Source: a virus. Taken from it: a stretch of DNA of 21,092 bases. The notes under the pieces are model-generated. The model worked only from the letters and a program-made list of their open reading frames with translations, did not search any database and was not told the origin of the DNA. Each line of letters starts with the position of its first letter. Positions within the stretch are counted from its first letter, which is position 1. Positions 943 through 21,079 of the stretch are shown one piece after another. The translations under genes were made by a program, and so were the position numbers. Location: the IMG/VR virus record IMGVR_UViG_3300040806_002438, positions 1 through 21,092 of that record. The stretch is one strand, 5' to 3'.

Positions 943-1419
943 TTATTCTCCTTTAAAGAATTCGTTAATTGGTAGATCGTATTTTAAACTATCAATCTTA
1001 TGTATCCCTATTAGGTATAGACTATAGCAAGAAACGGAACTGCCTCTTCCTACACCCCATACGATATTCTGTGATCTTAATGTATCTACAATGTATAACA
1101 TTACATTAAGTATGTCAGCCATATTATGTTTTTCAAATAAACCAAGTTCTAAATTAACACGATCTATCTGTTCTTGTGTTTGGCATTTTTCAATTAACCA
1201 ATCACGAATGTTTAAATTTTTGTACTCTTTTGGGATAAACCATTCTCTGGTCGTTGGAATATCAACCATAGGCATTGGATAGTTTAATTTTTCTTGAATA
1301 CATCTATCAACGTACTTTTGGATATTTTCAGATAAATCCTTTGTGTACGCATTTTCTAACACACTAGGACCGTGCGTTAGGATACCTGTAATTAAATCTT
1401 TGTTTTTATTTGTCAACAT
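943..1419 (-). CDS. DNA polymerase III alpha-like palm fragment without catalytic aspartates
   Basis: The 158-aa product matches one slice of C-family DNA polymerase (DnaE/PolC). The segment DRVNLELGLFEKHNMADI (86-103) resembles the 'RLEYELEVI..MGFAGYFLIV' helix. VWGVGRGSSVSCYSLYLIGI (120-139) resembles the palm motif 'VGPGRGSAAGSLVAYCLGI'. KIDSLKYDLPINEFF (141-155) resembles 'DIDPLRYDLLFERFLNPER'. In DnaE the metal-binding 'PDFDIDF' motif comes a few residues later, but here the protein ends at KGE and the next gene's ribosome site occupies that position. It therefore cannot catalyse synthesis alone. It could be a decayed remnant, a nucleotide- or DNA-binding module, or a partner or inhibitor of a polymerase. 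It overlaps the preceding 90-aa gene by 14 bases, the normal spacing of this operon, and has no internal stop, which argues for a maintained gene. Confidence 0.75.
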   Translation of the reverse strand: MLTNKNKDLITGILTHGPSVLENAYTKDLSENIQKYVDRCIQEKLNYPMPMVDIPTTREWFIPKEYKNLNIRDWLIEKCQTQEQIDRVNLELGLFEKHNMADILNVMLYIVDTLRSQNIVWGVGRGSSVSCYSLYLIGIHKIDSLKYDLPINEFFKGE

Positions 1420-4839: not shown

Positions 4840-6255
4840 TTACCAAGCAACATGAGCCGATCTAGTCCAAATTTCTGTTACACCATCGTAAACACCACGG
4901 CAAACATAAATGTAGTTAGCATCAGCAACCATCAGACCTGCGACATCGCCTGGTCTTCCTATGCCGGTAGCAGGAACATCATCTGTGTAAACCATATTAG
5001 GACGTGGCGGATTGTAAAATGTAATAGGATCTCCACCATTACCGCCTGACGCTGTCCATGAAGTAGTAGTAGTTACAACTCCAGCGGCAACACTTTGTAC
5101 TACAAGTTCGGCTGTGCCCGGTAGTCTAAAAATAGCACCGTTTTGAATGTTTGAATCATTGTTAATAGCAACGGTAGTTCTTGAAACTCCAATTTGAACA
5201 TTACCATTTAGTGTAGTAGTTACAGCAGGTCTTGTTACTACCCCTGACTTAACACTTAGTCTATCAAGTCCTAAAACATTTTCAGTTCTGATGTTTACAT
5301 TGTCATATGCTCCGATATAAATCTTTCCTCTAATATGAGCATCAGAGAAACCGTTAAGTGAACCACCTAACTCGTAAGCATTATCATTATCGGTTCTTAC
5401 ATTGCCTTTAATTGTTCCGTCTAGATTGATTGACGATTCTGTTTGATCGATTAGTCTGGTTGAATCATCACCAAAGATTGAACCTCTCATGTCACCGAGA
5501 AGTGTACCTACAAATAGCGTACCACCAGCTACACCCGGATCGTTAATTGAAACAACAGTTGTACCATTGCTATCAACAATATTACCTGTTAAGTCGCCAG
5601 TAACATCACCAGTAACATTACCTGTAACATTACCTGTTAAGTCGCCAGTAACATCACCGGTAACTGTAGCACCAGTCAAGTCAACATTTCCTGTAAACAC
5701 AGCATTTTCGCTTGTTTCGATAGGTCCAACAATTCTGCTAGCAATGGCGTCAATTAACGGAGTAGAATCTTCGCCAAACACTGAACCTTTAACATCACCA
5801 TCTAATGTACCTGCGATTGTGTTACTTGTGATTGCGTCGGCCTGAACGCTCTTAATAACAGCAAGGTTCCATCGATTGTTAGTTGATCCTAAAGCGTAAG
5901 TGTCTGTTTGATCAGGTATAATATCAGAAGTTAGTTCAGCATTTAAAGTAATGCCATCTGTGTCAGCATCACCTAGTGTTAAATTTCCATCTGCTGTAAT
6001 ACTTCCTTGAGCATGAATATTACCTGTAACATCTATGTTTCCAGTAATGTCTATATTACCTGTTCCTGTAATATCGTTGCCGTTTAAAACAATATCACTG
6101 ATTATTGTAGTACCACTAGCAAGTAACTTACCTCCTACTAGAGTTCCGTCACCCACATAGAGTGCTTTTGTATCTGTTGTGTAAATGAGTTCACCTGCGG
6201 CAGGAGTTATTGATTGTCTTTCTGCGTCGGTTCCTCTTCTGATTCTTAAGGCCAT
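4840..6255 (-). CDS. tail fibre protein with Mtd-like N-terminus and TGN/TGD repeats
   Basis: The 471-aa protein opens with RIRRGTDAERQSITPAAGEL (4-23) and IYTTDTKALYVGDGT (24-38), the pattern of the N-terminal domain of major tropism determinant-type phage receptor-binding proteins. Then follow TGN-type strands (62-80), an ALGSTNNRWNLAV segment (121-133), and two copies of a GD-[VM]-[KR]-GS-[VI]-FG-[ED]-DST module (153-169 and 254-270). Between these copies lies a run of four-residue TGN/TGD units (about 199-225). The C-terminal part (300-471) is beta-rich and non-repetitive and ends with YIYVCRGVYDGVTEIWTRSA, a likely tip domain. A GGAG ribosome site precedes the ATG. The gene probably forms a trimeric fibre that binds the host; no reverse transcriptase or template repeat was seen nearby. 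Confidence 0.88.
   Translation of the reverse strand: MALRIRRGTDAERQSITPAAGELIYTTDTKALYVGDGTLVGGKLLASGTTIISDIVLNGNDITGTGNIDITGNIDVTGNIHAQGSITADGNLTLGDADTDGITLNAELTSDIIPDQTDTYALGSTNNRWNLAVIKSVQADAITSNTIAGTLDGDVKGSVFGEDSTPLIDAIASRIVGPIETSENAVFTGNVDLTGATVTGDVTGDLTGNVTGNVTGDVTGDLTGNIVDSNGTTVVSINDPGVAGGTLFVGTLLGDMRGSIFGDDSTRLIDQTESSINLDGTIKGNVRTDNDNAYELGGSLNGFSDAHIRGKIYIGAYDNVNIRTENVLGLDRLSVKSGVVTRPAVTTTLNGNVQIGVSRTTVAINNDSNIQNGAIFRLPGTAELVVQSVAAGVVTTTTSWTASGGNGGDPITFYNPPRPNMVYTDDVPATGIGRPGDVAGLMVADANYIYVCRGVYDGVTEIWTRSAHVAW
5578..5664 (-). repeat. 12-base-unit repeats in fibre shaft, including a 30-bp exact duplication
   Basis: This stretch encodes TGD/TGN-V/L units. A 30-base sequence at 5581-5610 recurs exactly at 5629-5658 (period 48 bases), with related 12-base units between. 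It is coding DNA for a beta-structured shaft and a natural site for unequal recombination. Confidence 0.8.
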
Positions 6256-6271
6256 TTGTTTTATATCTCCG

Positions 6272-6949
6272 TTATATTATTGTTCCAAGGTCAACTTCAT
6301 TGTCAGAAGGTGCCAAAACTGTTCCAAAGTCATAGTCGCTTATCTGATAAAGTGCTTGAACAGCATTTTGAGGATCCTGATTAATTCCTCCAAAATCATT
6401 ATCAAACAGTGCTCCGAGTATACTTACTTGTGAAGCACCACCGTAATTACCTATAAAGTTAGTGGCATTTACATTACCACTTATGTTTATTGTACCAGTT
6501 CCTGTAATACTCTGACCATTAAGATCTAAAGGACCTGTAAGCTGAGCATTAATAAGATCGGCACTAATAGTAATAGACTTGCCTGATGTTTGAATATTAA
6601 CATTACTACCCTCAAGTAATTGTAATGTATCAGCACCATTAGTTGCTATCACTGTTCCATTGTTAGTAACAATAGAACTAAAAACATTTTGTAATGTGGT
6701 TCCGATTTCAATATCGTTAGTATTTTCTGTAACACTAATATTAGGACCAGCACTAATTGATCTGTACTTTAAAATGTTATTTGTTTTTTCAACAAATATC
6801 TCAGATCCTGAACCTAAATTTTGCCCAGTAACAGCTAGTTCGTTACTAAGCGATGTAAAGTTTTCATTAACTTTACGGAAAGCGGTTCTTAGATCGTCGC
6901 CTGTGCCGTCGTTAACTAAATTGCCGATATTAATTTCTTGTATTGCCAT
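6272..6949 (-). CDS. short fibre-like structural protein
   Basis: The 225-aa product starts with EINIGNLVNDGTGDDLRTAF (5-24) followed by RKVNENFTSL, nearly the same as the start of the 2456-aa fibre (EINIGVEGNDGTGDSIRDSF, SKVNDNFQEI). The remainder is beta-rich, with TGTGTINISGNVNATNF (150-166) resembling fibre shaft strands of the 471-aa protein. It ends NEVDLGTII, the beginning of the 'DLGS...RW' motif seen complete in its neighbours (ALGSTNNRW, DLGTPTQRW), so it may be a shortened fibre paralogue that lost its tip. The ribosome site is AGGAG, 8 bases before the ATG, and a near-consensus late-promoter box lies just upstream. A baseplate or fibre adaptor role is plausible but unproven. Confidence 0.85.
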   Translation of the reverse strand: MAIQEINIGNLVNDGTGDDLRTAFRKVNENFTSLSNELAVTGQNLGSGSEIFVEKTNNILKYRSISAGPNISVTENTNDIEIGTTLQNVFSSIVTNNGTVIATNGADTLQLLEGSNVNIQTSGKSITISADLINAQLTGPLDLNGQSITGTGTINISGNVNATNFIGNYGGASQVSILGALFDNDFGGINQDPQNAVQALYQISDYDFGTVLAPSDNEVDLGTII

Positions 6950-6966
6950 TAAGTGCTCCTACTAAC

Positions 6967-6974
6967 TATTTATC
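6967..6974 (-). promoter_or_regulatory. near-consensus late promoter box before the 225-aa fibre gene
   Basis: The minus strand reads GATAAATA, one mismatch from the T4 late consensus, at the junction of the protease stop and the 225-aa gene. Transcription would begin near 6961, leaving only a 12-base leader that still contains the AGGAG ribosome site. It is plausible as an internal promoter but unproven. Confidence 0.35.
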
Positions 6975-9900
6975 CTAACGCCTAATTCGTGACCTTGGGT
7001 ATGCTTGACCGCTTTCGGGTCTTGCTTTAAAGTTCCTCTTAGGAAAAGTAGTTCCTTCGGTTTTTCGTTGCTGTCTGTAGCGTACTATTAGGTTAGGCGC
7101 TCCAAGTAATGCTCCAGTATCTTCATAGTTTCCTGACTCAGTATCACTCAATGATCCTTTCTCTGCCATTTGTACTATTAGATCACGTGCTTGTTCGCAG
7201 GTCATTTCAGGATAAGTTTGTGCTAAACAGGCAATTATCCCAGCAACTTGTGGACTAGCCATGCTAGTTCCGGATATTTTAGCAACCCTATATGCTGCAT
7301 TTCTTGGCTCTGAAAACGGACTGGCTGCAGAATAAGCACTTTGAACATAGGTTCCTGGAGCCCAAATTGTTACTCCAGGTCCTCTATCGCTATAATCAGC
7401 CGGACCTTCGTCGAGCGATGCTTGGTCACCCATTGCTCCAACAACAATAGTAGGCAAGTCATAACCACCAGTTGCTGTAGTATCGTATCTTCCCGGTGAA
7501 CTTCCTCTCATATAGTAGTAGGGAAAGTTTACTGAATCAGGATAGCGAATACCCATTTCAAATGTATTGTCCCAATCTTGATCACCAGGTTCGGCATGAT
7601 ACCATTGTCCGTTACCTGCTGAACTTACGTTTATAATACCTTCATCAATAGCATCTTCAATATCACCATCCAGAGCATCAACAGGAACTGGTATTCGTTT
7701 ACCTGCGATAAATCCAAAGTCGTTAAGTTGTTGTGTTGTAAAAGGAGATGAAATTTCATTAAATTGATTATTTTCTTCTATTGTTACTCTAAAATTTGTA
7801 GGATTCTCTTCATCGAATCTAACCTCCCAACGTATTCCTGGATCACCAAGAGTTCCTGTCGAAGCTCCATTTCCTTCAAATACAACTCTATAATAGCTTG
7901 TACTTGGATTTGCCTGTACAACAATAGTTCCATTCATCACAGTGTGATTAGCACAGTTATAATAAAATGTTCCTGCTGTGTTTGGGGTCCAAGATATAGT
8001 ACTACCTCCAAATGCTCCGTTATTAGTAACACCCGGCACCTGATCTCCTGTTCCGGTTGATTGTACGGTCTTAATATACAATGGATGAGCAAAGTTTGAA
8101 TTGACTGTCATTTCTAAAGTATCACCTACAAGCATAGTAATAGTAGGACCGTCGCCGCTAACAGCACCATTTCGATCAGTTCCGTTACTAAACGTCCAAG
8201 CAACATTACTATTATTAACAACATCCATTGAATATGTATTAACTGGTGTAGCAAAATTTCCTGTAGGTTCACTTCCGTAATATATTCTTTGACAACTAGT
8301 AAAAGGACTACCGCCTGCGGTATTTCGATTCCCACTTCCAATCATAATTTTAGGAAAAGGAATATTTTCCGGAAAAAGATTAGGTTCTGTTGACGACCCG
8401 CCACCCATTGTTATGTAACTGTTAGTTCCAATACCGATTTCTGTATAATCCACTTGAAACATTGTAACAGTAAAAGGTAAAGTTAAATCCCAATGTCCGT
8501 CATCGTTATTACCTGACGTTGGAGTTGTTAACACATTTAGTCCTGATACGTCTCCAATGCTAACATTCCCTTCTCCGGATGCGACTCTTGTAGCAGTAGC
8601 AGAAGGTGTTGATTCTTGTGTAATATTGAGCGTAACGGAAATGTTAGTATCAAAAGTACAGTTAGGATTAGGTTCAGTACCGTAATTGGTTATGATTGAA
8701 ATAGTCCATCTACCGTCCTTGTTTATAGTAATAGTTTCGTCAATTACAGCATTTACAGAAGCACCTGTTAAGATACCGTCTGTATAAGTTGCTACCAAGA
8801 TATTATCTGGATCTCTAACTTCAACTCTAAGGTCTAGATCAACAGTCCCTGTAGGTGTAGTGTATGTTATATCTTGTAGGATATCTACAGTGAAGTCACC
8901 GTATCTTACTCCATCTTCCGGAAGTGTCTCTACGTATACAGTATTAGTAGTTTGTACTTTTCTAGTATCGTCGAGGAAACATCTTCTACCTCCTGAAATT
9001 GTCCATCCAGCCCCGCCATCAAATCCACCACTAGGAAATGGATTTAATGCGCCTTCTGGATCACCGGGATTTTCAGTTCCTGATGTTGTACAATTATATT
9101 GTGCCCAAGAGTCTACCACTTCTGTTCCGTTATTATATCTAAAAGTTGCTAATTCTGTGTCATTACTTGAATCATATATTCCTGAAAATCCGGCAGCCTT
9201 CTGTTGAGTAGAAGTCGCAGTATATCTAGTACCTCTGTAAGTAACGGCAGTAATATTTGAAAATGTCCATTGGCTTGGAAATATACTCATACCCCAACTA
9301 CTGTTTACTACTGTGGGATTTTTTACTCCAGTGTCAGGGTTAATTGCTTTTCGCTTGTGGAATTCTCTTACATAATCATAAACATAAGGAAAATTAGAGT
9401 TATTAATATCTCCAGCATAGTAAAAGATATTGTATAAGTTAGCATCTCTAGCCCAACCTTGTGTGTTACCACCTACAGTTCCCATTACGTGAATAGCATG
9501 ATAATTACCGCTGGTATACTGACCGTAGTTATATGTATTACCTTCCTGTCCACCAACGACGTCGTTATATAGATCATACCAGTCAATTAGGTTTACTCTA
9601 GAGCCACCTGTGCCGTCAACGTTAACAGCGAATTCTGGATGACCCACTGCTTGGCCGTCAGCATCCATAATGATACAGTCTACATTTTTTCCTGTTTCAG
9701 TTAATGTAATTGTTTGTGTATTATCTCCAGGCCAGTCTGCGTGTACACCGCCCTCAACACATCTTAGTAATCCCCAGTTTTTGTGGTTACTGTTTTGACC
9801 AACACCTCTATTAAAGTTAGATGTTTGCGTTACTTCATGTGCTCCAAGACGTACACCTATTTCTTCTGGATGAGGTTGTACAGCTTTTACGTCAGGATGA

Positions 9901-10106
9901 CTCTTTAAATTTAATGCTTCTTTTGAAGTTAGGAAATATGTTGTAGATCTACTTGCTGGGCGTTCTTCAGCTATCATAGCTGATCTTTCTATTGTTGTAT
10001 TAGTTGGAGTAATACCGTCAGTGCTTAATTCATCATGTAAGCGATTCATGCCTTCCATGGTTTTAGCAGTTACAATATAACGTCTTTGTGTAACGTCTCT
10101 TCCCAT
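6975..10106 (-). CDS. subtilisin-like (S8) serine protease with inserted cupredoxin domain, virion-associated
   Basis: All S8 landmarks are present in the 1043-aa product: Asp148 in IIMDADG, His203 in YHAIHVMGT, oxyanion-type Asn832 in SSAGNG, and Ser948 in SGTSMASPQVAG. Residues 8-82 (RYIVTAK... HPDVKAVQPHPE) resemble an inhibitor I9 propeptide, so self-cleavage near residue 82 is likely. No signal peptide is seen. Between VVNSSWGMS (267-274) and the Asn832 region lie about 550 extra residues. They comprise a beta-sandwich-like part (370-500), a domain with GIGTNSYITMGGG (558-570), and a cupredoxin-like part (about 622-732) with His674, Cys718, His721 and Met724 in the amicyanin-type C-x2-H-x2-M spacing. 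The gene sits among fibre genes, 4 bases from the preceding one, so it may process fibres or digest host surface protein. The protease call is strong; the role is inferred. Confidence 0.92.
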   Translation of the reverse strand: MGRDVTQRRYIVTAKTMEGMNRLHDELSTDGITPTNTTIERSAMIAEERPASRSTTYFLTSKEALNLKSHPDVKAVQPHPEEIGVRLGAHEVTQTSNFNRGVGQNSNHKNWGLLRCVEGGVHADWPGDNTQTITLTETGKNVDCIIMDADGQAVGHPEFAVNVDGTGGSRVNLIDWYDLYNDVVGGQEGNTYNYGQYTSGNYHAIHVMGTVGGNTQGWARDANLYNIFYYAGDINNSNFPYVYDYVREFHKRKAINPDTGVKNPTVVNSSWGMSIFPSQWTFSNITAVTYRGTRYTATSTQQKAAGFSGIYDSSNDTELATFRYNNGTEVVDSWAQYNCTTSGTENPGDPEGALNPFPSGGFDGGAGWTISGGRRCFLDDTRKVQTTNTVYVETLPEDGVRYGDFTVDILQDITYTTPTGTVDLDLRVEVRDPDNILVATYTDGILTGASVNAVIDETITINKDGRWTISIITNYGTEPNPNCTFDTNISVTLNITQESTPSATATRVASGEGNVSIGDVSGLNVLTTPTSGNNDDGHWDLTLPFTVTMFQVDYTEIGIGTNSYITMGGGSSTEPNLFPENIPFPKIMIGSGNRNTAGGSPFTSCQRIYYGSEPTGNFATPVNTYSMDVVNNSNVAWTFSNGTDRNGAVSGDGPTITMLVGDTLEMTVNSNFAHPLYIKTVQSTGTGDQVPGVTNNGAFGGSTISWTPNTAGTFYYNCANHTVMNGTIVVQANPSTSYYRVVFEGNGASTGTLGDPGIRWEVRFDEENPTNFRVTIEENNQFNEISSPFTTQQLNDFGFIAGKRIPVPVDALDGDIEDAIDEGIINVSSAGNGQWYHAEPGDQDWDNTFEMGIRYPDSVNFPYYYMRGSSPGRYDTTATGGYDLPTIVVGAMGDQASLDEGPADYSDRGPGVTIWAPGTYVQSAYSAASPFSEPRNAAYRVAKISGTSMASPQVAGIIACLAQTYPEMTCEQARDLIVQMAEKGSLSDTESGNYEDTGALLGAPNLIVRYRQQRKTEGTTFPKRNFKARPESGQAYPRSRIRR

Positions 10107-10110
10107 TTTA

Positions 10111-11259
10111 TTATGCCTCTAATTGAACTAGTGTAAGTGTAACAGTTATTGCTTGAGATGATCCTGATTTATTTGTAACCGCTATAGGTATTACATCAGT
10201 TACTGGGTTTTCGTTGTTGAAACCTAAAACTGCCGGACTAATTAAAACAGTATCAGCTCCTGTTGTAATTGTTTCTACAACAACACCTGCTCCTGGTGAT
10301 GGATCATCTGTTTCTGCTCTTGAAGCATCTGCTGTTCTGCTTGCTGTGTCTGTGTAAATTCTGACCCAAGCCGCGGCATCAACTTGTAACTTTAACACCA
10401 TGTAAGATTTGAAAGCACCTATAACATTTGTATTTCCTATAGTACCGTCAGCAATAATTGAAGTCGAAGCAGATTTAGTTGTACGACTGCCAAGGCCTGT
10501 GCCTCCACCGCCACCTGCTACTGCTCCTGGTTGCCATCTTGAGTTACCAGCATCCCATACTAGAGCTTCTCCGTCAGCGGCTCCTACTTGATCTAGCTTG
10601 TATGTATTAAGTACACCTTGTAAGCCATCAACTAGCACACCTGAACTATCTTCAGAATAAACACTTCCAGTTATATCTCCGTCTAGATTACCTAAAACGT
10701 TTCCTACAACTCCGCCAGTGTGTGTGCCTTGTGTATTACCTACAATAGTATTTGAAAATGTTTTCACGCCAGCAATCGTTTGATCACCTGTGATATAAAC
10801 ACCATTTGTTACTGTTCCGGCATTTCCGGTAACGTTACCTGTAACATTGCCTGTAACATCACCAGTCAAGTCACCTGTAACATCACCTGTGACATTACCA
10901 GTTAAATTTCCTGTGACATTACCAGTTAAGTTTCCTGTTAGTGTTCCTTCAGTAGCATCAACAATAATTGAACTATCATCAGCAAACACAGAACCTTTTA
11001 AGTCACCAGTTACATCTGCTGTTAATGAGTTAACTGAAATATTATTTGCGTATAGGTTATCCCAGCGTTGTGTTGGAGTACCTAAGTCCCAAGCACCAAC
11101 AGCATTTGGTGTAACGTCTTGTGAAAGATTTTGTAGCACACCAGTGACTGCCTGTGAGTTAACAAATGTAAAGTTATCATCAATTACTTTTAAAGTTTCG
11201 TTAACCTTATCCCAGGTTAGTGGGTGATTGGTTGAATTGTAAAGTGTTGTTATTGCCAT
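10111..11259 (-). CDS. tail fibre protein with TGN/TGD repeats and conserved C-terminal tip domain
   Basis: The 382-aa protein has an N-terminal helix WDKVNETLKVIDDNFTFV (16-33) related to the N-terminal module of its neighbours, then WDLGTPTQRWDNLYANN (57-73). Two GD-[LI]-[KT]-GSV-[FY]-[AS]-[DE]-DSS modules follow (85-101, 193-210), flanking a run of ten or so TGN/TGD units (107-147). A glycine hinge AVAGGGGGTGLG (246-257) leads to a C-terminal domain (260-382) with AWVRIYTDTASRTADASRAE (297-316), a pattern I associate with marine phage fibre tips. The DNA of the shaft is itself repetitive. The ATG overlaps the stop of the giant fibre gene (TAATG) with a GGGGAG ribosome site inside that gene's end. 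It is likely a trimeric fibre or fibre-tip protein; the receptor is unknown. Confidence 0.87.
   Translation of the reverse strand: MAITTLYNSTNHPLTWDKVNETLKVIDDNFTFVNSQAVTGVLQNLSQDVTPNAVGAWDLGTPTQRWDNLYANNISVNSLTADVTGDLKGSVFADDSSIIVDATEGTLTGNLTGNVTGNLTGNVTGDVTGDLTGDVTGNVTGNVTGNAGTVTNGVYITGDQTIAGVKTFSNTIVGNTQGTHTGGVVGNVLGNLDGDITGSVYSEDSSGVLVDGLQGVLNTYKLDQVGAADGEALVWDAGNSRWQPGAVAGGGGGTGLGSRTTKSASTSIIADGTIGNTNVIGAFKSYMVLKLQVDAAAWVRIYTDTASRTADASRAETDDPSPGAGVVVETITTGADTVLISPAVLGFNNENPVTDVIPIAVTNKSGSSQAITVTLTLVQLEA
10819..10941 (-). repeat. 12/24-base-unit repeats in second fibre shaft
   Basis: The region encodes about ten four-residue TGN/TGD units. A 20-base segment at 10886-10905 recurs exactly at 10910-10929 (period 24 bases). 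The unit is the same type as in the 471-aa fibre gene, so the two loci share homology blocks. Confidence 0.8.
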
Positions 11260-14200
11260 TATAGTCTCCCCACCGCTACTTCAATTAATCCTATTCGATC
11301 ACTGTCATATGTTTCAATTGCTTTACCAATAATTGTACCTGGTTTAGCATCACTGCCTGCGCTTGTAGCAACACCTGGAATGCCACTAGCAATAATCAAG
11401 TCGCCCTTTTCGATTTTACCTACAACCTTACAAGGCACTCTACCTTGTAACGCAACTAGTACTTTCTCTCCAGGACAATCTTTATTCATTGTGTAAGCCG
11501 CTTCAGCACTCACTACTCCAGCAACTTTATGTGTTCCTAGTTTAGATGCTTCTGTAACTTCTTTATCGCCTCCGAATTCTAACACTGTTCCTGTTTCATA
11601 CTGTGTATCGCCTTCGTAATATTCAGCTAAGTCAGCCCAAGTAGCTTCAAGTCTACTACCTTGTACTAATTGCCAGTTACCTTCAATATAACCAATAGCT
11701 GAAGCGTTATTCTTTTCAGCGGTTAAAAATCCACCACTGCCAACTTCAACGTAACCAGCACTACCGCCTTCTGTTCTAAATTTATGTGTGCCTGCTAGGT
11801 ATTCAGTAAAATGATTAGTAGAAACATTACTAAACTGTGCTTTAATGGCCGGCTGTCCATTACCGTTTCTAAACATCGTATAGTACGCATTGTCTGCTGA
11901 ACTTTGTTCGTGCTTGGTAATAGTCGGAGTTGAAGATGCTCCGTAAGTTAACCACAAGCCTTCTAAGTCTGCTTGGTTACCAGATTCAACACCGTCGCTA
12001 ACATCTAATATAATATTACCATCACCGGTAATACTTTCAAAATTAGATGTACCAGCAAAGTCAGCACTACCTGTTCCACTTCTTCTTACCATAGTGTCGG
12101 CACTATTAGAAGAAGTATATTCAATAGTACCAAAGTCAGATGCTTCGTTACCTGTAGCATTTAGTCTGACCATAACACCAGCGCCAGCAAAGTCAGGTCT
12201 TCTACAACCTAAACCATCGTCAACGATTGTTTTAGCATCAATTGGAACTGGTGGTCCGTCAATTGCTTGACCAATACCACCTGGTGATGATCTTCTAGCA
12301 AGAACTTTTGTGTTTGAACCAACAGCAAGATTTGTTTCGTCTGTTGGATCAACAACAGCAACATCGATATGTCTTAGTTTTTCAAAACCGATACCGTCAT
12401 AGTAAGCGCCTGCTCTTGTAGTACTAGTTGAATCTTTAAGTTCTAAAAATCCATTTACAAGTGTAAATTCTAATTCTTGAGCACCGCTTATTAAACCATA
12501 CTGTCTTGCTTTACCGCCAGTAATAACTCCTCCTGCGGAAGTGTCTGCTGGAATTCTAAATTGATTTGGTAAAATAACAGTTACTTGCCAATCACCGTTA
12601 AGTGCTGTAACTACTGTTTCTTCTGAAATAACAACAGCATCGCCTGTAGTAAATCCATGATTTTCATTTGTAGTAATAACTGTGTAATCATCACCTGCGC
12701 CTGGACTAGTTTCTGCTACGTAGGTATAACCTTGAATTGGAATGCCTTCAAATTCACTTACTCTAGCAGTGTTCAAAGATAGTTTATGTTGTTCAATTCC
12801 AGCATCGTAATTAACATCTGCGTTAACAATAACATTGTCATTAATTGTTGCTACAATTTGTGGATCAGGGAAGTTTGTTACTGTGGGTGCTACAGCATCC
12901 GCCACACCAGGAGCATTCTGCTGGAATGTAAATGTTAAAGCACCAACAACAGTTGCGTTAGTAAATTCACTACTTCCGTTTGTTGTAAACGCTAAAATAT
13001 CAGCACTATCAATGTAACTGTAGTCCGGCTGTCTCTTAAGATTTGGATCACTTGGATCTTCTTCAAACATCCAACCTTCTGGAGCATCTTGAAGATTACC
13101 TATCTTCATATAAGATTTTCTAACTGCTTCTGTTTCGCCTTCAATACCTACATCAGGATCAGGAAGACCTGTAACAGGACTGTTACTCATATCAATCGGA
13201 CCAGTCATTTGACGTGAACCGTCACGTGGTAAGTAACCTGGGCCAATTAATACAGTTTGAATTCCACCTTCATGTGTTAAACCTAAACGTCTGTCAATGT
13301 ATGATCTAACGGCTGCCTCTGTTGGTAGTGCTTGGTTACTTGCTTCACCAGCACCGCCCAGTGTCACATCACCTGTAAATTCACTAACAGTTTCACCTGC
13401 CGCAAGCCTCAGGCTTGTAATACCCTGTAGATCAATCTTAGCATCAAGTGTAACTTTACCAGTACCTTGATCAACAGCAAAGAATTCACCAACTCTAAAG
13501 TTACCTGATTGGTCTGAGGATACCCAGAACACACGTCCGGTTCCTTGTTCAACTGCTTCTTGAGATTGTTGTGGAGTATTATTAGGAGGTCCAAAAATGT
13601 TTGCTGGATAGTTTGTATCTGCGTATGAACCTGTACCAATATCAAGGAAGTCATGACCTGTTGCTCTCATGGTTGAGATGTTAACAGTAACTTCACCTTG
13701 GGCACCGGATCTTAATCCTGCTTTAAGTTGTACATTTTCTAAAGAAGCATTAAAGTCAGCAGTTGCTCCTCCAAATAATTCTACTGAACCACTTGTAGCA
13801 TTAGAACCGAAAGTGCTACCGTCTACAAGTGTAGTTAGATTTTTATCACTATATAAATCAAATGTAGTTCCTGTAACATTTCCAGCATAGTATAAACCAT
13901 CAAAGCTAGCATTATCTGCGCCTGTTATTCTAATTTGTCTGCCTGGTCTTAACTCAGCAAGTGAACCTGAGACTGTAACAGTAATAGTACTAGTCGCAGT
14001 TGCTCCGGTTATTGTATAAGTTCTATTAACAAGAGTTTCGTTTGTGTCTGAGATATTTTTAATACCTACTACACCATAACTACCAATCTTTGTGCCGCCA
14101 CCATCTAAAATATCAACATCTTGATAGCTAGTAACTTCATAAAGACTGTCTTGATAACCAAAAATCATTCCACCTGTAGCAGTACTACTACCGTCATAGA

Positions 14201-17200
14201 TTGTGAAACCTGTAGTTTGCTTTGTTAATCTTGCTGATTGCTCTGGTAAAATTGATTGAACAACGATAGCATCGTCGCCAATACCATTAGCCCAAGTCGG
14301 CGGAGTAAATCCAGGATCTAGTTTTCTAACATTCAAGTTAACATAAGGAAATCCATCCTTAGTTGAAATAGTTTGATCACCTTGTACAGCATCAACTCCA
14401 GTATAACCATTAAATGATAACACTCGAATTACGGCATTATCAACAGTGGAGCTTTCGTCAAATACCAAAGCAGTTGAAGGTCTAGTACTAACAACCTGAA
14501 CTTTGTCAGCAATAGTAAATTCTTCAAACGCTCTAATAATTACAGGCTTTCCTGCTGGAACATCTGCGGCAAGTCCACCGTCACTGATATCAGTATCAAT
14601 TGACATTTCGTAAGTACCACTTGGCAATCCGCTTGTGCTTATGGCTGTAATTTTGTACGCTCTTAATCCTACAGTACTATTTGGTCCAGTTCTTTGAGGA
14701 TCATTAGAGTGATCAATTTCAACAAAACATCCTGGGAATGGCGGGTAACTTACGTTTGCTACATAAACTTTAGCAATAGTTTTATCGTTAACAACGTCAA
14801 CAGGTCTATCTTCGTATACAGTACCTGTTTGTATTAGTGGAAATTTAAGTGATACTCTATCTGGTACTTCGTTTGGATCAGCACCGTTTGCTCGAATACC
14901 GTATACACCATGTGCTGACGAACCGTTTAGTGATCTAATCTGCGCACCATTGTTAGCAAAATAAGCAGTGTAACAATAGTATGTAAACATAGATACTGAT
15001 TCTACAAGTCCGTTATTGGTAGCAAATACACCATAACCCATATCGTTAACTTGTGTAAAGTCATTACCAAGCATTGATTTATTACCTGGTGTAGCAAGTG
15101 TAATTTTACCTGCGGTCATCTGCTCGTATGGATTATCAAGTACACACTCATATAGTGGATAAACACTAGGAACACCAGTTGAATCTCCAAACGATGCGTA
15201 TGTCTCTCCGGCCGCGGCATCGTCACCAGCAATAAGGGTTTTCATATAACCTATTGAAGTTCCAATAGCATCGCTAATACCTGAGTCAGCTAAATCACTA
15301 GCAGTTAGTGTTACATCTTGTGTTACAGACCAATTAATAGTATGAGTTGTTCCAGTTCCACTATCCGCAATATCAATAGCAAATGTCGAGCCTGGTTCTC
15401 TTTCTTGTGCTCTTACAAGTTCTAAAGTTGTATATAATTTAAATCTGTTATCGTCAACTTTGTATGTAAAATAAGTTCCACTGTTTACTAAAGTTCCGCC
15501 GTCAGCAGTTCCGATAGATGTACCACCACCGTTATTATAAACTACTCTAGACCCAGTATTGAATCCATGATTTACAATAGTAAATTCGTTTGAAGCAATA
15601 TCTAATACAGTTGCGGGATCAAATGTTTGTCCTACATATGGATTTGACGGAGCGGTATTATTTAAAATCTCTCCAATTCTAATTCTAATATGTTCAACAG
15701 CATCAAGAGTTGCTGGTAATTGGTTAACTGTTTGTGGATCGCCAGAGGAAGGTATAAGTTTTTTACCTGCTCTGTAATAACTATAACCTGCTCTAATTGA
15801 GTTATTAAAGTTACCTTGGTTTAAATCACTTGCTCCTGCGTTAGGAGCATTACCAAACAAGTCAATACTTAACGCATCAACAATAAATCCTGTATCTCTA
15901 AAGCATGTTGCTACATTATATTCTAAGTTAGGATAATTTACAGCAAGGTATCCAATTGTATCAGCTTGAATAAACTCTTTGTTTTCCTGTAAAAGCCTTT
16001 TAGCGATATACATTTTTTCGCCATAGCTAATAATATTTGATACAATATCAAAACAGTTTTGTACTTCTTGTTGTGCGCCACCCTGATCAGCATTTGTAAT
16101 AGAAGCGATTTTAGTTTGTGCTATGTTACCTAATGCTGGCCATGTATTTTGTTGTACACAAGTAATAGCAATATCACGTGCTTTAGTAACAGCCGCCGCA
16201 GTTGCCGCAACCTGTCCTGCTACAACAGTAAGACCACCAGAGAAATATAATCTACCTGCTCTGGTTGATTCTTCGTAGCCTCCGTATAATACGTCACTAA
16301 CAACAGCGTCAACAATTAATCCAACGTCCCTTCTACACTTAGTCTCATCAAAGGTAAAGCCAAGATTTTGTGTTGCTAGCCATTGTATAGTTTCTTCTTG
16401 AATAAATGTTCGGTTTTGTTCGATCAAAACTTTAGCATCAAAGAAAGCAGATTCAACTCTATTTGTAAGTGTAATTCTATAAATGTCTTCGCCAATGTTA
16501 AACGAAGTAGGTAGTTGTGGTTCACGTTGTAAGCCACCGATTACAATTTTACTATCATCTCCGCCTTCTGGATTACGTGTAAGTGCTCCTGATTCATCAG
16601 CTCTATACAATAGAATACCATCTAGGTTACCCATGAATCCATCAACAAACTGTCCACCAGCAAAGTTTTTAACATTAATACTTTTAGAGAAAGAAGAACC
16701 TGTTTGACAATAAGGTGATTTAGAGTTAACCTGATTGTTCGGATCTAGTACCATCATAAATCCGCCGTGTCCTTGAACACTAACGTTTCTTACGATTGTA
16801 GCGTCCGCACATAGGAACACATCCATTTCATCGTTGTTCTTAGGTTGACTTGAGAAATCCAAAGGATCAGTTAGGTATTGGTAACCAAATTCATAAGGTG
16901 TAACTCTTAGACCGTCAATAATTGTGTCTCTACGGAAGAACACTCTTGCCCAAGGAGATTCTGAAACTCCTTGTTTTGGTCTAATGATTGTACGTCTAAA
17001 TTCATCACCTCTTAGTGATACGTTTGGTGATAATCTAATAGGAAATTGTTCATAGTAGATACCAGTTTCAACTTGAATTGTAATTTGTACGTTTTGAGCA
17101 GGATCTCCATATTGGATTACTTCACCTATTTGGAAAGTTCCTTGTAATAGTTCAACTTCAAAAATTTCTCTACCTTGAGCATCTCTTTGAGCATCATGAG

Positions 17201-18629
17201 AAATAATTTTAGCAATGGCATCTGAATCAATACCTCTTAGTAACTGACCTTCTCTTAAATCGTCCGTAAAGTCTGTTCCTTTATTTTCTGTTTCCAACAG
17301 CATTCTTGGTAAGAATATCTGTATTGTTGGAATACTAGTGTATCCAGAACCTTTTCTAAGAATTCCTACTTCTTTAATTTCACCAGCAATTTCAAGTGTG
17401 TTTGCTTCTGCCGCCGAAGTCGGATTGCCTCCGGAGAAAATAACCGAAGCACTACCGTAATTAGATCCACCTGCGGTTACTAAAACTCTGTTAACACTAA
17501 ATTTAACACTAAATTTAGCAGTACCACTTCCTGATACTGCTGATACGTGACCTACGTCAGTAATGTCTGTAGGTAGCACACTGTAAATACCTGGATCTAC
17601 AATAGCTACTTGTGTTATACTTCCAGCAAAGTCTTTAGCAACGACCCTTAAAACAGCAGGAACCACTACATTTCCGCCTGTTAGTGTAAGTTCAGTTCCG
17701 ATTTCGTAATCTGTACCACCATTAACAATTTCAATTACTTGCTCTTCGTCAAGTTGCATTTCTACAGTACCTGTAGCACCATTACCTGATAAAGGTGATT
17801 GTATTAGACTGATAAGTGTACAATCTTGTGTACCGTTATCATAGGTAAGTGTTTTCTGATAAGGTCCAAGTTCAACCGGTGCCGCCAATACTAGTTGTTC
17901 GGCAATCTCTGCCGCTTTTCTAATAGAAGCAAATGCTGTTGAAGGAGAACGCCCTTGTTGACTTAATGGAATATCTGTTCGAGTATCTGACCCATTCGTA
18001 GCAACATATAAATTATTTGCTGAAATAAATGTTTTACTGTCAACGTATGCTTTAGTAGAAGCAACTAATCCGCCATAGTTAACATCATCTGAATCAATTG
18101 GATTACGTGAAAGGATCAATGGTCCACTCATTGTACCCCAATCTGGTTCAACATTACCGTTTTCGTCAATAGCATCAACACCAGCAAGTGACAATTTAGT
18201 ATCTACATATCCTTTATTTGGCGCATCACTGTCTAATTGTGCGTCAGCAACGTTTGTAATACGCTTTTGATTAGCATCCATATCCGCGGCAAGTGTCGGA
18301 TCCGGGTCATTAATAAGCGCCGACGCTAGTGAACTGAACTTAATTACGCCAGGAACACTAGAGTCAATAACAATAGTTTCATTGCTATCTAGTTTTGTAA
18401 ATTGAATTTTTTCGTTATTTGAGTCAACTGTAAGAATCTTATTGTTATCTTCTGTTCGATAACTATTCTGTGCTACATCGTCTAGTCCAATAAAACTTAG
18501 GGCGCCACCTAGGCCTAATACGGCATAAATTTCTTGGAAATTGTCATTTACTTTACTAAATGAATCGCGAATACTATCGCCGGTGCCATCATTGCCCTCA
18601 ACACCGATATTAATCTCTTTTCTTGCCAT
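11259..18629 (-). CDS. giant tail fibre / appendage protein, 2456 aa
   Basis: At 7.4 kb this is the largest gene here. In order the protein has: the shared N-terminal module (EINIGVEGNDGTGDSIRDSF, 5-24); two YVD(T/S)K connector segments (141-145, 195-199); a region starting NNLYVATNGSDTRTDIPLSQ (205-224), continuing to about 670 with PNVSLRGDEFRRTIIRP, that looks like a right-handed beta-helix; a duplicated helical module (731-800 and 875-957); a second beta-helix-like stretch around 1260-1350; further shaft; and a distinct C-terminal domain (2332-2456) beginning ADLAEYYEGD and containing ALQGRVPCKVVGKIEKGD. That last domain is widespread in marine T4-like phage fibres by my recollection and recalls chaperone or autocleavage ends of fibres. 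No enzyme site is recognised. The start has GGAG and lies about 42 bases below a perfect late promoter. Confidence 0.92.
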   Translation of the reverse strand: MARKEINIGVEGNDGTGDSIRDSFSKVNDNFQEIYAVLGLGGALSFIGLDDVAQNSYRTEDNNKILTVDSNNEKIQFTKLDSNETIVIDSSVPGVIKFSSLASALINDPDPTLAADMDANQKRITNVADAQLDSDAPNKGYVDTKLSLAGVDAIDENGNVEPDWGTMSGPLILSRNPIDSDDVNYGGLVASTKAYVDSKTFISANNLYVATNGSDTRTDIPLSQQGRSPSTAFASIRKAAEIAEQLVLAAPVELGPYQKTLTYDNGTQDCTLISLIQSPLSGNGATGTVEMQLDEEQVIEIVNGGTDYEIGTELTLTGGNVVVPAVLRVVAKDFAGSITQVAIVDPGIYSVLPTDITDVGHVSAVSGSGTAKFSVKFSVNRVLVTAGGSNYGSASVIFSGGNPTSAAEANTLEIAGEIKEVGILRKGSGYTSIPTIQIFLPRMLLETENKGTDFTDDLREGQLLRGIDSDAIAKIISHDAQRDAQGREIFEVELLQGTFQIGEVIQYGDPAQNVQITIQVETGIYYEQFPIRLSPNVSLRGDEFRRTIIRPKQGVSESPWARVFFRRDTIIDGLRVTPYEFGYQYLTDPLDFSSQPKNNDEMDVFLCADATIVRNVSVQGHGGFMMVLDPNNQVNSKSPYCQTGSSFSKSINVKNFAGGQFVDGFMGNLDGILLYRADESGALTRNPEGGDDSKIVIGGLQREPQLPTSFNIGEDIYRITLTNRVESAFFDAKVLIEQNRTFIQEETIQWLATQNLGFTFDETKCRRDVGLIVDAVVSDVLYGGYEESTRAGRLYFSGGLTVVAGQVAATAAAVTKARDIAITCVQQNTWPALGNIAQTKIASITNADQGGAQQEVQNCFDIVSNIISYGEKMYIAKRLLQENKEFIQADTIGYLAVNYPNLEYNVATCFRDTGFIVDALSIDLFGNAPNAGASDLNQGNFNNSIRAGYSYYRAGKKLIPSSGDPQTVNQLPATLDAVEHIRIRIGEILNNTAPSNPYVGQTFDPATVLDIASNEFTIVNHGFNTGSRVVYNNGGGTSIGTADGGTLVNSGTYFTYKVDDNRFKLYTTLELVRAQEREPGSTFAIDIADSGTGTTHTINWSVTQDVTLTASDLADSGISDAIGTSIGYMKTLIAGDDAAAGETYASFGDSTGVPSVYPLYECVLDNPYEQMTAGKITLATPGNKSMLGNDFTQVNDMGYGVFATNNGLVESVSMFTYYCYTAYFANNGAQIRSLNGSSAHGVYGIRANGADPNEVPDRVSLKFPLIQTGTVYEDRPVDVVNDKTIAKVYVANVSYPPFPGCFVEIDHSNDPQRTGPNSTVGLRAYKITAISTSGLPSGTYEMSIDTDISDGGLAADVPAGKPVIIRAFEEFTIADKVQVVSTRPSTALVFDESSTVDNAVIRVLSFNGYTGVDAVQGDQTISTKDGFPYVNLNVRKLDPGFTPPTWANGIGDDAIVVQSILPEQSARLTKQTTGFTIYDGSSTATGGMIFGYQDSLYEVTSYQDVDILDGGGTKIGSYGVVGIKNISDTNETLVNRTYTITGATATSTITVTVSGSLAELRPGRQIRITGADNASFDGLYYAGNVTGTTFDLYSDKNLTTLVDGSTFGSNATSGSVELFGGATADFNASLENVQLKAGLRSGAQGEVTVNISTMRATGHDFLDIGTGSYADTNYPANIFGPPNNTPQQSQEAVEQGTGRVFWVSSDQSGNFRVGEFFAVDQGTGKVTLDAKIDLQGITSLRLAAGETVSEFTGDVTLGGAGEASNQALPTEAAVRSYIDRRLGLTHEGGIQTVLIGPGYLPRDGSRQMTGPIDMSNSPVTGLPDPDVGIEGETEAVRKSYMKIGNLQDAPEGWMFEEDPSDPNLKRQPDYSYIDSADILAFTTNGSSEFTNATVVGALTFTFQQNAPGVADAVAPTVTNFPDPQIVATINDNVIVNADVNYDAGIEQHKLSLNTARVSEFEGIPIQGYTYVAETSPGAGDDYTVITTNENHGFTTGDAVVISEETVVTALNGDWQVTVILPNQFRIPADTSAGGVITGGKARQYGLISGAQELEFTLVNGFLELKDSTSTTRAGAYYDGIGFEKLRHIDVAVVDPTDETNLAVGSNTKVLARRSSPGGIGQAIDGPPVPIDAKTIVDDGLGCRRPDFAGAGVMVRLNATGNEASDFGTIEYTSSNSADTMVRRSGTGSADFAGTSNFESITGDGNIILDVSDGVESGNQADLEGLWLTYGASSTPTITKHEQSSADNAYYTMFRNGNGQPAIKAQFSNVSTNHFTEYLAGTHKFRTEGGSAGYVEVGSGGFLTAEKNNASAIGYIEGNWQLVQGSRLEATWADLAEYYEGDTQYETGTVLEFGGDKEVTEASKLGTHKVAGVVSAEAAYTMNKDCPGEKVLVALQGRVPCKVVGKIEKGDLIIASGIPGVATSAGSDAKPGTIIGKAIETYDSDRIGLIEVAVGRL
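15759..16439 (-). repeat. diverged internal duplication of a helical module in the giant fibre
   Basis: Residues 731-800 and 875-957 align by eye: AKVLIEQNRTFIQEETIQWL with AKRLLQENKEFIQADTIGYL, then CRRDVGLIVDAVVSDVLYGG with CFRDTGFIVDALSIDLFGNA, then STRAGRLYFSGG with SIRAGYSYYRAG. The copies lie at 16439-16230 and 16007-15759. Each has a conserved Cys and an R-D pair. The module looks helical and interrupts the beta-helix regions. Confidence 0.75.
17491..17514 (-). repeat. perfect 12-bp tandem duplication in giant fibre
   Basis: Two head-to-tail copies of a 12-base unit (ttaacactaaat on the plus strand) encode the doubled peptide KFSVKFSV (residues 372-379). The repeat is in frame and exact, consistent with a recent slippage event in a beta-helix-like part. 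Confidence 0.85.
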
Positions 18630-18710: not shown

Positions 18711-18998
18711 ATGTTCATAAAGGAATATATTTTAAAAAAGATGTACGAGCGGTACAGTAAACTAGGCACAAAGCATCAATATTATAGAGATGTTGCTATG
18801 GTAGTATTACGCTGTGATAATTGTGATACTGAATTTGAAAGGTCACGCAGTAAAATGGATCATAGACGCATGAGTAATAATTATTTTCATGTGTGTAGTA
18901 ACTGCGATGCTAAAAGATTCGCACAAAGAAAGGGTATAGAACGCAAGAAAATATGGGATATGCCTGCTAGCAGTGACTTACCAGTAAGCAAGTACTAA
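18711..18998 (+). CDS. small zinc-ribbon protein, unknown function
   Basis: The 95-aa basic protein has two CxxC knuckles, CDNC (35-38) and CSNC (62-65), separated by 23 residues that include KMDHRR, a treble-clef or zinc-ribbon layout. The pattern resembles short phage proteins distantly like HNH nucleases, but a clear catalytic HNH set is not visible. From memory, similar proteins occur in marine T4-like phages with the same N-terminal KEYILKKMYERY helix, which favours ATG 18711 over the internal ATG at 18741; neither has a good ribosome site. It is transcribed away from the fibre operon, and its stop overlaps the iscA stop by 3 bases in tail-to-tail fashion. A nucleic-acid-binding role is plausible; function is unknown. 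Confidence 0.82.
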   Translation: MFIKEYILKKMYERYSKLGTKHQYYRDVAMVVLRCDNCDTEFERSRSKMDHRRMSNNYFHVCSNCDAKRFAQRKGIERKKIWDMPASSDLPVSKY

Positions 18999-19315
18999 AT
19001 GTGAAAACTTTCACCACAACCACAGCGACCTGATTCCATAGGATTTATAAAGTCAAAACCTTCCTGAAATTTTTCTTTTTTGTAGTCGATAGTAATATTG
19101 TTTAGATATACTGTAGATTTCGGATCGACATATACCTTAATGTCGTTAATTTGATGTAATTCGTCATCGTTATTAGGGGTGTCTACATATTCTAACACAT
19201 AAGAAAGACCGTTACACCCTGTGGTTTTAACACCTATTCGTATACCAATAGTATTACTACGTTTACTCATAAATGTTTTAATTTTATTATCGGCTGTTTC
19301 AGTTATCTGGATCAT
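18995..19315 (-). CDS. IscA/HesB-family A-type iron-sulfur carrier
   Basis: The 106-aa protein has the A-type carrier pattern. An N-terminal ITETADNKIKTFM helix leads to GIRIGVKTTGCNGLSYVLEY (24-43) with Cys34. The protein ends in GRCGCGESFHI with Cys98 and Cys100, the C-terminal CxC(G)-type motif. The three cysteines are those that hold a 2Fe-2S or 4Fe-4S cluster for transfer to client proteins. In IscA, SufA and HesB the length is about 105-120 aa, so this is full length. Phage copies may keep host Fe-S enzymes or phage Fe-S proteins supplied during infection. The start overlaps the end of a TTG-started ORF by 17 bases, which suggests translational coupling. Whether it is closer to IscA, SufA or ErpA cannot be decided here. 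Confidence 0.93.
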   Translation of the reverse strand: MIQITETADNKIKTFMSKRSNTIGIRIGVKTTGCNGLSYVLEYVDTPNNDDELHQINDIKVYVDPKSTVYLNNITIDYKKEKFQEGFDFINPMESGRCGCGESFHI

Positions 19316-19887: not shown

Positions 19888-20055
19888 ATGTTTAAATGGT
19901 TAAAAGAACTTTTTGGCTTTGATACTCCGGATACTCCGGAAATTGCTAAAACAGCACCTGCTAAAATAGCACCGGCCAAAAAGAAAACACCTGCTAAGAA
20001 GCCTACGACAAAGAAGGCTCCAGCAAAGCGTGGTCGTCCAAAGAAGAGTTCGTAA
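19888..20055 (+). CDS. 55-aa lysine-rich AT-hook protein
   Basis: ATG 19888 has a perfect AGGAGG ribosome site (19875-19880) at 7 bases. The 55-residue product begins MFKWLKELFGFDTPDTPEI, a short amphipathic helix, and continues with Ala-Pro-Lys repeats (KTAPAKIAPAKKKTPAKKP) like a histone H1 tail. It ends in KRGRPKK (47-53), the canonical AT-hook that binds the minor groove of AT-rich DNA. Such a protein could coat or bend phage or host DNA, or tether DNA to a membrane or protein through its N-terminal helix. Its last 53 bases overlap, antisense, the 3' end of the UVDE gene. The ribosome site and motif make it convincing despite the length. Confidence 0.8.
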   Translation: MFKWLKELFGFDTPDTPEIAKTAPAKIAPAKKKTPAKKPTTKKAPAKRGRPKKSS

Positions 20056-21079
20056 ATTCTTCGTACAGTTTAATGCTGGCAAGATTCTTAGCCTTAGATT
20101 CTACCATAATGTCGGCATAATCCCTAAAACTAAGAGCCCATTCATTAACTGCTTTATTCCACATAAAGTCTGAATGAGCTCTTAGTTTCTGTTTTTTATA
20201 TCCTAGCTCTAATAATACATCCATATCAGGTTTTACAAGATGATCGTGATCGGTAAGTAGGTCTTCACGGCTAACACTGTAATGAATTACAGGACGCACA
20301 CCCCGCCAACTATCTACTATGCGAGCAAATCTATCGTCGGTGGGTTGAATGTATTCTCCTGTACGGACCCAGTGATGGTGTATGTCAAGAACGAGGGCGA
20401 GGTCGTTGGCAAGTTCGAGACTTGCGTCGACACCCCACGACATTTCGTCGTTCTCAATCGTAATAGTGTTTCTCGCTTCTTGAGATAGTCTTGGGAGGAC
20501 TGCTTTGATACCGGCTGGACCCTGTCGGCCCGATATGTGGACATTACATTTTGCGTCTTGGAACGTCTGTCCATATCCCATCCAGCGGAAGACATCGGTG
20601 TGATATTCAAATTCTTCTATGCTCCTCTCAACAATCCCTGGATTATCAGAAGCAAGAACAGTGAATTGCCCAGGGTGCATACTAACCCTAACATCAAGTT
20701 CCCTCGCTCTACGACCGACGTTGGCAAAGTTCCTCTCGCAATAATCGCGGACGTCAGGCTTGCGCCAAAAATAAGACCAAGTAGGCTCAGTATAAACAGG
20801 AAGAACATCGCTGCCAAGCCTAACCATTCGTAAATCATTCGGTAATCCTCCAACGTAACAGATAAGGTTCATGTATGACTGAATGTTATGAACCATGATA
20901 TCCCAAAGCCGCTGTTCTGCAACGTCCTTGGGTTGATTATTTAACCACCTAACGGTAGTTGCCTTTGTGTTTAATGGACGCTGAATCTCCTCGAGAAGTT
21001 TCTTCTTCTGAGTCTGATCAGGATGCATATATTTACAGGCAAAGCCTATACGTTTAGTCTGGGTTTGAGAATTCGTCAC
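20003..21079 (-). CDS. uvsE: UV damage endonuclease (UvsE/UVDE family), start near window edge
   Basis: The 358-aa product has the UVDE TIM-barrel signature: RIGFACKYMHP (10-20), VSMHPGQFTVLASDNPGIVE (132-151) with His135, VHISGRQGP (180-188) with His181, ITIENDE (206-212) with Glu209, LVLDIHHHW (229-237) with Asp232 and His234/235, IHYSVSR (265-271) with His266, AHSDFMW (301-307) with His302, and a late Glu327. These correspond to the metal-binding His/Asp/Glu set of the family, which nicks DNA 5' of UV photoproducts and starts an excision repair independent of UvrABC. The listed start is GTG 21079, but the frame remains open to base 21092, so the true start may lie outside. The 3' end overlaps the AT-hook gene by 53 bases. 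Confidence 0.93.
   Translation of the reverse strand: MTNSQTQTKRIGFACKYMHPDQTQKKKLLEEIQRPLNTKATTVRWLNNQPKDVAEQRLWDIMVHNIQSYMNLICYVGGLPNDLRMVRLGSDVLPVYTEPTWSYFWRKPDVRDYCERNFANVGRRARELDVRVSMHPGQFTVLASDNPGIVERSIEEFEYHTDVFRWMGYGQTFQDAKCNVHISGRQGPAGIKAVLPRLSQEARNTITIENDEMSWGVDASLELANDLALVLDIHHHWVRTGEYIQPTDDRFARIVDSWRGVRPVIHYSVSREDLLTDHDHLVKPDMDVLLELGYKKQKLRAHSDFMWNKAVNEWALSFRDYADIMVESKAKNLASIKLYEEFTNSSLDDHALLEPSLS

What the first reader, a model, noticed from the sequence alone, without database searches (positions are those of the whole stretch)
7911..8243. Amicyanin-like copper-site motif embedded in a phage subtilase
Residues about 622-732 of the protease end in AGTFYYNCANHTVMNGTIVV. Cys718-x2-His721-x2-Met724 with upstream His674 in FAHPLY is the type-1 copper ligand set, with the short loop spacing of amicyanin. 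A copper or electron-transfer-like domain within an S8 protease in a fibre cluster is unusual. It may instead be a structural beta-sandwich used for adhesion, but all four ligands are retained.
Basis: partly seen in the sequence, partly recalled or inferred. Interest (0 to 1): 0.7.

Follow-up and report, generated by a model that had tools for sequence, protein, structure and literature searches.

The report
Plastocyanin-like copper module in phage tails
The tail proteins of marine phages, including those of many cultured T4-like cyanophages, carry a small domain with the fold and the four metal-gripping residues of blue copper proteins, which suggests, though no experiment has shown it, that many marine phage particles carry copper.

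Summary
Protein 10106..6975(-) is a 1043-aa subtilase, and residues about 624-731 hold H674, C718, H721 and M724 with amicyanin spacing. Profile searches, an AlphaFold model (pLDDT 95) and Foldseek all place the domain in the cupredoxin fold. Ligand distances could not be measured, but the ligand columns align with those of plastocyanin. Among 145 homologous domains less than 70% identical, 137 keep all four ligands (mean pairwise identity 36%), with spacing variants C-x2-H-x2/3/4-M. In four clusters the three equatorial ligands are lost together.

The domain is not special to this protease. It is a mobile module, absent from most orthologous subtilases (a clean empty site), C-terminal in others, and present in tail fibres, spikes and the gp9/gp10-like baseplate connector. 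Three single-domain queries matched 46, 323 and 332 phage records, nearly all cyanophages. Some bacterial copies look like surface lipoproteins. No matching paper was found in the library searched.

Best reading: a virion-surface accessory beta-sandwich with a type-1 copper site, probably used for adhesion and stability. Copper loading and any redox role are inferred; electron transfer has no support beyond the ligand set.

The parts
6975..10106 (-). Subtilase gene, 1043 aa: predicted I9-like propeptide fold (res ~8-78), S8 catalytic core split by a ~500-residue insertion (res ~276-794), which carries several beta domains
   Evidence: Pfam S8 2.2e-19; secondary structure; Foldseek hits to proteinase K/subtilisins
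7914..8237 (-). Cupredoxin-like domain, residues ~624-731
8085..8087 (-). H674, first ligand (HP motif)
7953..7955 (-). C718, thiolate ligand
7944..7946 (-). H721, second His ligand
7935..7937 (-). M724, axial ligand
7893..8270 (-). Inserted segment (res ~613-738) relative to orthologues that read QRIYYGVEGTAPNRTYRVRVEG straight through
   Evidence: empty-site alignment
9663..9665 (-). D148 catalytic Asp of the S8 core (invariant in 38 orthologues)
   Evidence: assignment by motif
9498..9500 (-). H203 catalytic His
   Evidence: assignment by motif
7611..7613 (-). N832 oxyanion-hole Asn
   Evidence: assignment by motif
7263..7265 (-). S948 catalytic Ser (GTSMASP)

Best explanation
The region is a genuine cupredoxin module that can hold one type-1-like copper ion between H674, C718, H721 and M724. 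It is an accessory virion domain that moves between the tail fibres, spikes, baseplate connectors and tail-cluster proteases of marine phages. In this protein it sits in the turn of a beta-hairpin inside the large insertion of a subtilase that keeps its catalytic residues. I think the site takes up copper at or after release into seawater, and that the metal-locked loop makes a stable, exposed surface for attachment to the host or to other virion parts. Shown by computation: fold class, ligand retention, mobility, and genomic place in tail clusters. Inferred: copper as the metal, the time of loading, and adhesion/stability as the benefit.
For: Fold: AlphaFold model of res 616-742, pLDDT 95.1; the 50 PDB hits listed are rusticyanin, AcoP, two-domain laccases, copper nitrite reductase, multicopper oxidases and a CuA/amicyanin-loop chimera (E to 2e-5, TM about 0.5). 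Sequence: profile reaches plastocyanin E=2.7e-6 with all four ligands aligned. Conservation: 137 of 145 clusters keep all four ligands at 36% mean identity; 29 of 35 in the set that matches neither search pattern; loop length varies (x2, x3, x4) while the ligands stay. Co-loss: four clusters lose H, C and H together. 125 of 145 domains have a single Cys, so the Cys is not kept for a disulphide inside the domain. Mobility: empty site in most orthologues, internal in some, C-terminal in others. Tail context: gp9/gp10-like connector, tail spike, tail fibre. Some bacterial copies have lipoprotein-like N-termini, read by eye, so the domain probably works outside cells too.
Against: No metal has been measured. 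TM-scores of about 0.5 to known cupredoxins are modest. H-P replaces the H-N usual in plastocyanin, amicyanin and azurin (from memory). Phage virions assemble in the cytosol, where free copper is extremely scarce (general knowledge), so the site may be empty at release. One of 21 phage records tested has no match (S-CREM1), so the module is not indispensable.
Confidence: 0.62

Rival explanations
1. Copper acquisition or Trojan-horse role: the copper-loaded tail domain is recognised by a host copper or surface protein, or the site strips copper from the host surface, as proposed for iron in tail fibres.
For: Iron in phage tail fibres and the Trojan Horse idea are published (PMC11705849); the module sits in tail and fibre proteins.
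Against: No host receptor evidence; the same module sits in proteases and in the baseplate connector, not only in receptor-binding tips.
Confidence: 0.14
2. True electron transfer or redox sensing: the site cycles Cu(I)/Cu(II) to oxidise something on the host surface or to trigger the tail or the protease.
For: Complete type-1 ligand set including the axial Met.
Against: No partner redox enzyme seen; the module is permuted among unrelated proteins; the protease keeps its catalytic residues with or without it.
Confidence: 0.1
3. A purely structural Ig-like beta-sandwich in which the ligands are relics of a cupredoxin ancestor and bind nothing.
For: Beta-sandwich accessory domains are common in virions (general knowledge); a few copies have lost the ligands and persist.
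Against: Ligand columns are four of the five most conserved; losses are concerted; loop length changes preserve the ligands.
Confidence: 0.08
4. The four residues bind another metal (Zn or Fe) in vivo.
For: Iron sites are known in phage tails (PMC11705849); cytosolic assembly favours metals other than copper (general knowledge).
Against: The Cys-His-His-Met set on this fold is a copper set in the solved structures that match.
Confidence: 0.06

Closest known systems
Amicyanin (TIGR02657)
   Same: C-x2-H-x2-M loop, upstream His, single-copper cupredoxin fold; best NCBIfam match of the isolated domain (E=2e-4)
   Different: Score 21.7 bits against a cut-off of 110.2; HP instead of HN (from memory); fused into virion proteins, no methylamine dehydrogenase partner seen
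Plastocyanin / phage PetE (TIGR02656, PF00127, phrog_515)
   Same: Fold and ligands; some family members have the C-x2-H-x4-M spacing (L031, L065, L071, L084)
   Different: In P-SSM2, syn9, S-RIM2, P-RSM6 and S-SCSM2R short separate frames of 118-136 aa, which I take to be true PetE, match the virion profile only weakly (19-25 bits) beside virion copies of 69-132 bits
Rusticyanin and AcoP
   Same: Top Foldseek hits
   Different: Electron carriers of iron-oxidising Acidithiobacillus (from memory), about 20% identity
Iron-binding HxH tail fibres (T4 gp37, Alteromonas phage R22Y; PMC11705849)
   Same: Metal sites built into tail proteins
   Different: Different fold, ligands and metal
phrog_677 'baseplate wedge tail fiber protein connector'
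   Same: All 62 aligned members match it; its C-terminal part is this domain
   Different: The name comes from the rest of the protein; the cupredoxin part is not named

Membership tests
Cupredoxin superfamily | Greek-key beta-sandwich cupredoxin fold | tested here: met
   pLDDT 95; the 50 listed PDB hits are cupredoxins or cupredoxin-domain enzymes
Cupredoxin superfamily | Sequence homology to cupredoxins at family level | tested here: met
   profile E=2.7e-6 to plastocyanin; single sequence below Pfam/NCBIfam cut-offs
Type-1 (blue) copper site | His, Cys, His plus axial Met in the right strand/loop positions | tested here: met
   secondary structure puts Cys at a strand end and Met just before the next strand
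Type-1 (blue) copper site | Ligands converge within bonding distance | not testable with these tools
Type-1 (blue) copper site | Binds copper; band near 600 nm | not testable with these tools
   needs purified protein
Amicyanin | C-x2-H-x2-M spacing | tested here: met
Amicyanin | Equivalog score above the curated cut-off of 110.2 bits | tested here: not met
   21.7 bits
Plastocyanin (PetE) | Equivalog score above the cut-off of 87.85 bits | tested here: not met
   18.7 bits
CuA domain | Two bridging Cys | tested here: not met
   125 of 145 domains have one Cys
Peptidase S8 (host protein) | Asp/His/Ser triad and oxyanion Asn | tested here: met
   D148, H203, N832 in 38 of 38 rows, S948 in the 36 rows covering it

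The most novel reading that the evidence does not exclude
A type-1 copper site is a common part of the baseplate and tail fibres of T4-like cyanophages, and copper loading of the virion, in seawater or from the lysing host, controls adsorption or tail triggering, which would make phage particles a notable pool of organic copper ligands in the ocean.
Probability: 0.15. Interest if true: 0.88.

Novelty: new variant of a known kind. Interest (0 to 1): 0.66.

Why it matters
If copper is bound, T4-like cyanophages, which are abundant in the sunlit ocean, would carry one or more copper sites in their tails. That would add copper to the metals known in phage tails, touch the marine copper budget, and give a direct chemical handle on adsorption. 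It also warns that some 'PetE' annotations in phage genomes may be tail proteins and not photosynthesis genes (S-SCSM2R).

Tried and rejected
A disulphide role for Cys: rejected, most domains have one Cys. CuA site: rejected for the same reason. Chance motif: rejected by conservation and fold. Recent capture of a cellular plastocyanin gene: not favoured, since the virion family forms its own high-scoring profile group and putative true PetE genes coexist with it at low score. Two independent insertions at the same subtilase turn: suggested by the quick tree (two changes forced by starred branches), but one clade is not rejected (AU p=0.56), so left open. The profile search of viral contigs with the divergent alignment A1 failed; degenerate DNA patterns for GHPFYIxT and GTYYYxCxxH were used instead. 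Paper searches with cupredoxin, blue copper, copper-binding, plastocyanin or plastocyanin-like plus phage terms gave nothing on virion cupredoxins; the library holds open-licence PMC papers only and no bioRxiv preprints, so prior reports elsewhere are not excluded.

Full report
1. What is there. The ORF 10106..6975 on the minus strand encodes a 1043-aa protein. Pfam finds Peptidase_S8 (E=2.2e-19); Foldseek with the full-length model (pLDDT 77) returns keratinase, proteinase K, aqualysin and subtilisins. D148, H203 and N832 are kept in all 38 aligned orthologues and S948 in all 36 that cover it, so the protease is probably active. The N-terminal ~80 residues have the beta-alpha-beta-beta-alpha-beta pattern of an I9 propeptide (fold assignment from memory). 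The catalytic core is split by an insertion of about 500 residues built of beta domains.

2. The observation. The isolated domain matches amicyanin (2e-4), plastocyanin (1.8e-3) and PF00127 (4e-3), all below cut-off. The profile of 62 homologues reaches solved plastocyanins (2.7e-6), amicyanins (7e-5) and rusticyanin (9e-5); in the printed plastocyanin alignment the HP histidine falls on the ligand His and C/H/M on C/H/M. AlphaFold gives pLDDT 95 for residues 616-742, and the 50 listed PDB matches are cupredoxins or enzymes built of cupredoxin domains. I could not measure ligand distances, because the tools give no coordinates.

3. Conservation. Iterated HMM search over the loci gathered from IMG/VR and phage records gave 329 domains, 304 distinct. 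Of 145 clusters below 70% identity, 137 keep H, C, H and M: 129 with C-x2-H-x2-M, 7 with x3 and 1 with x4. Mean pairwise identity is 36%, and the ligand columns rank 1, 3, 4 and 5 of 109. Most of these loci were found with DNA patterns that name H or C/H, so I split the set: of 35 clusters matching neither pattern, 29 keep everything; of 41 matching the upstream-His pattern alone, 40 keep C, H and M; of 63 matching the C-x2-H pattern alone, 62 keep the upstream His and Met. Four clusters lose H, C and H together while keeping the Met; the association of upstream His with C-x2-H has Fisher p about 1e-5 without correction for relatedness. That is the pattern expected of residues that serve one metal.

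4. It is a module. In most orthologous subtilases the sequence runs QRIYYGVEGTAPNRTYRVRVEG without a gap; in the window and its close kin the cupredoxin sits in exactly that turn, and another set (L266, L267, L269, L270, L279) carries a different subtype there. In L294, L308 and L309 it is at the C-terminus of the same kind of protease, as it is in S-H9-1 and ACG-2014 phages. Elsewhere it is in the P-SSM2 tail spike (two copies), the Bellamy protein annotated tail fibre/baseplate wedge initiator, the very large P-HM1, P-HM2 and MED4-213 proteins, a Prochlorococcus podovirus and an Actinomycetia phage. It also forms the C-terminus of the gp9/gp10-like baseplate connector of cyanophages.

5. How widespread. 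Three single-domain tblastn queries were run against the phage collection: the window domain gave 46 records at E 1e-2, the S-H34 domain 323 and the P-SCSP2 domain 332 at E 1e-5. These lists overlap and were not merged, so I give no combined total; nearly all are cyanophages. The rows shown are a spread of each ranking. I opened and read ten more records, chosen by hand, mostly connector-type: the best copy in each keeps H, C, H and M. Whole-record searches found a match in 20 of 21 chosen phages, 1-5 each, though some of the weakest are short separate frames that look like true PetE; S-CREM1 has none. What share of all cyanophages carry the module was not measured. The window itself has one copy.

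6. Bacterial relatives. One capped scan of genome contigs with the GHPFYIxT pattern returned 118 stretches, in which 33 domain hits in 31 ORFs matched the profile. I printed the N-termini of eleven of those ORFs. Seven (L404, L438, L392, L424, L364, L334, L353) read to me as lipoprotein signal peptides with a lipobox-like Cys; L382 looks like a signal peptide without one; L356 starts in a Gly/Ala-rich repeat, and L430 and L440 show no readable start. No signal-peptide predictor was run. One of the seven (L424) is from Polaribacter irgensii. L425 carries a domain almost identical to one in viral contig L056 and may be viral. So surface lipoproteins are one bacterial setting of the domain; how common they are among all bacterial copies was not measured.

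7. How it probably works. The ligand set says a single type-1-like copper; adhesion or stabilisation of an exposed virion surface is my inference from its placement in tail and baseplate proteins and, in bacteria, in likely lipoproteins. Cytosolic assembly makes loading before lysis doubtful. Electron transfer has no support beyond the ligands.

8. Against the known. It is a cupredoxin by fold and ligands, but not amicyanin or plastocyanin by curated score. Phage PetE (phrog_515) is a different gene; the S-SCSM2R 'PetE' is a 168-aa tail-cluster protein next to an S8 protease and belongs to the virion family. Iron in tail fibres is published (PMC11705849). I found no paper in the library on a virion cupredoxin; preprints and most subscription journals are not in it.

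Noticed in passing
L451:2794-3300: Synechococcus phage S-SCSM2R gene annotated PetE is a virion-type cupredoxin protein beside a tail-cluster S8 protease, likely misannotated.
   Followed up: partly
L031, L065, L071, L084: Virion cupredoxins with plastocyanin-like spacing C-x2-H-x4-M.
   Followed up: partly
L404, L438, L392, L424, L364, L334, L353: Bacterial ORFs with the same domain and lipoprotein-like N-termini, read by eye; L392 and L424 also seem to carry a CHRD-like region (from memory).
   Followed up: partly
window 4840-18629: A 2456-aa fibre protein and neighbours with Mtd_N and T4_gp9_10_N matches make this a tail-fibre cluster.
   Followed up: no
window 943-1419: 158-aa ORF with GRGSSVSCYSLYLIGI, reminiscent of a DnaE polymerase fragment (from memory, not searched).
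   Followed up: no
window 18995-19315 and 20003-21079: Likely IscA/HesB-type Fe-S carrier and UvdE-type endonuclease (by eye, not searched).
   Followed up: no
L289, L296, L298, L320: Two adjacent S8 protease genes in tandem in some viral contigs.
   Followed up: no
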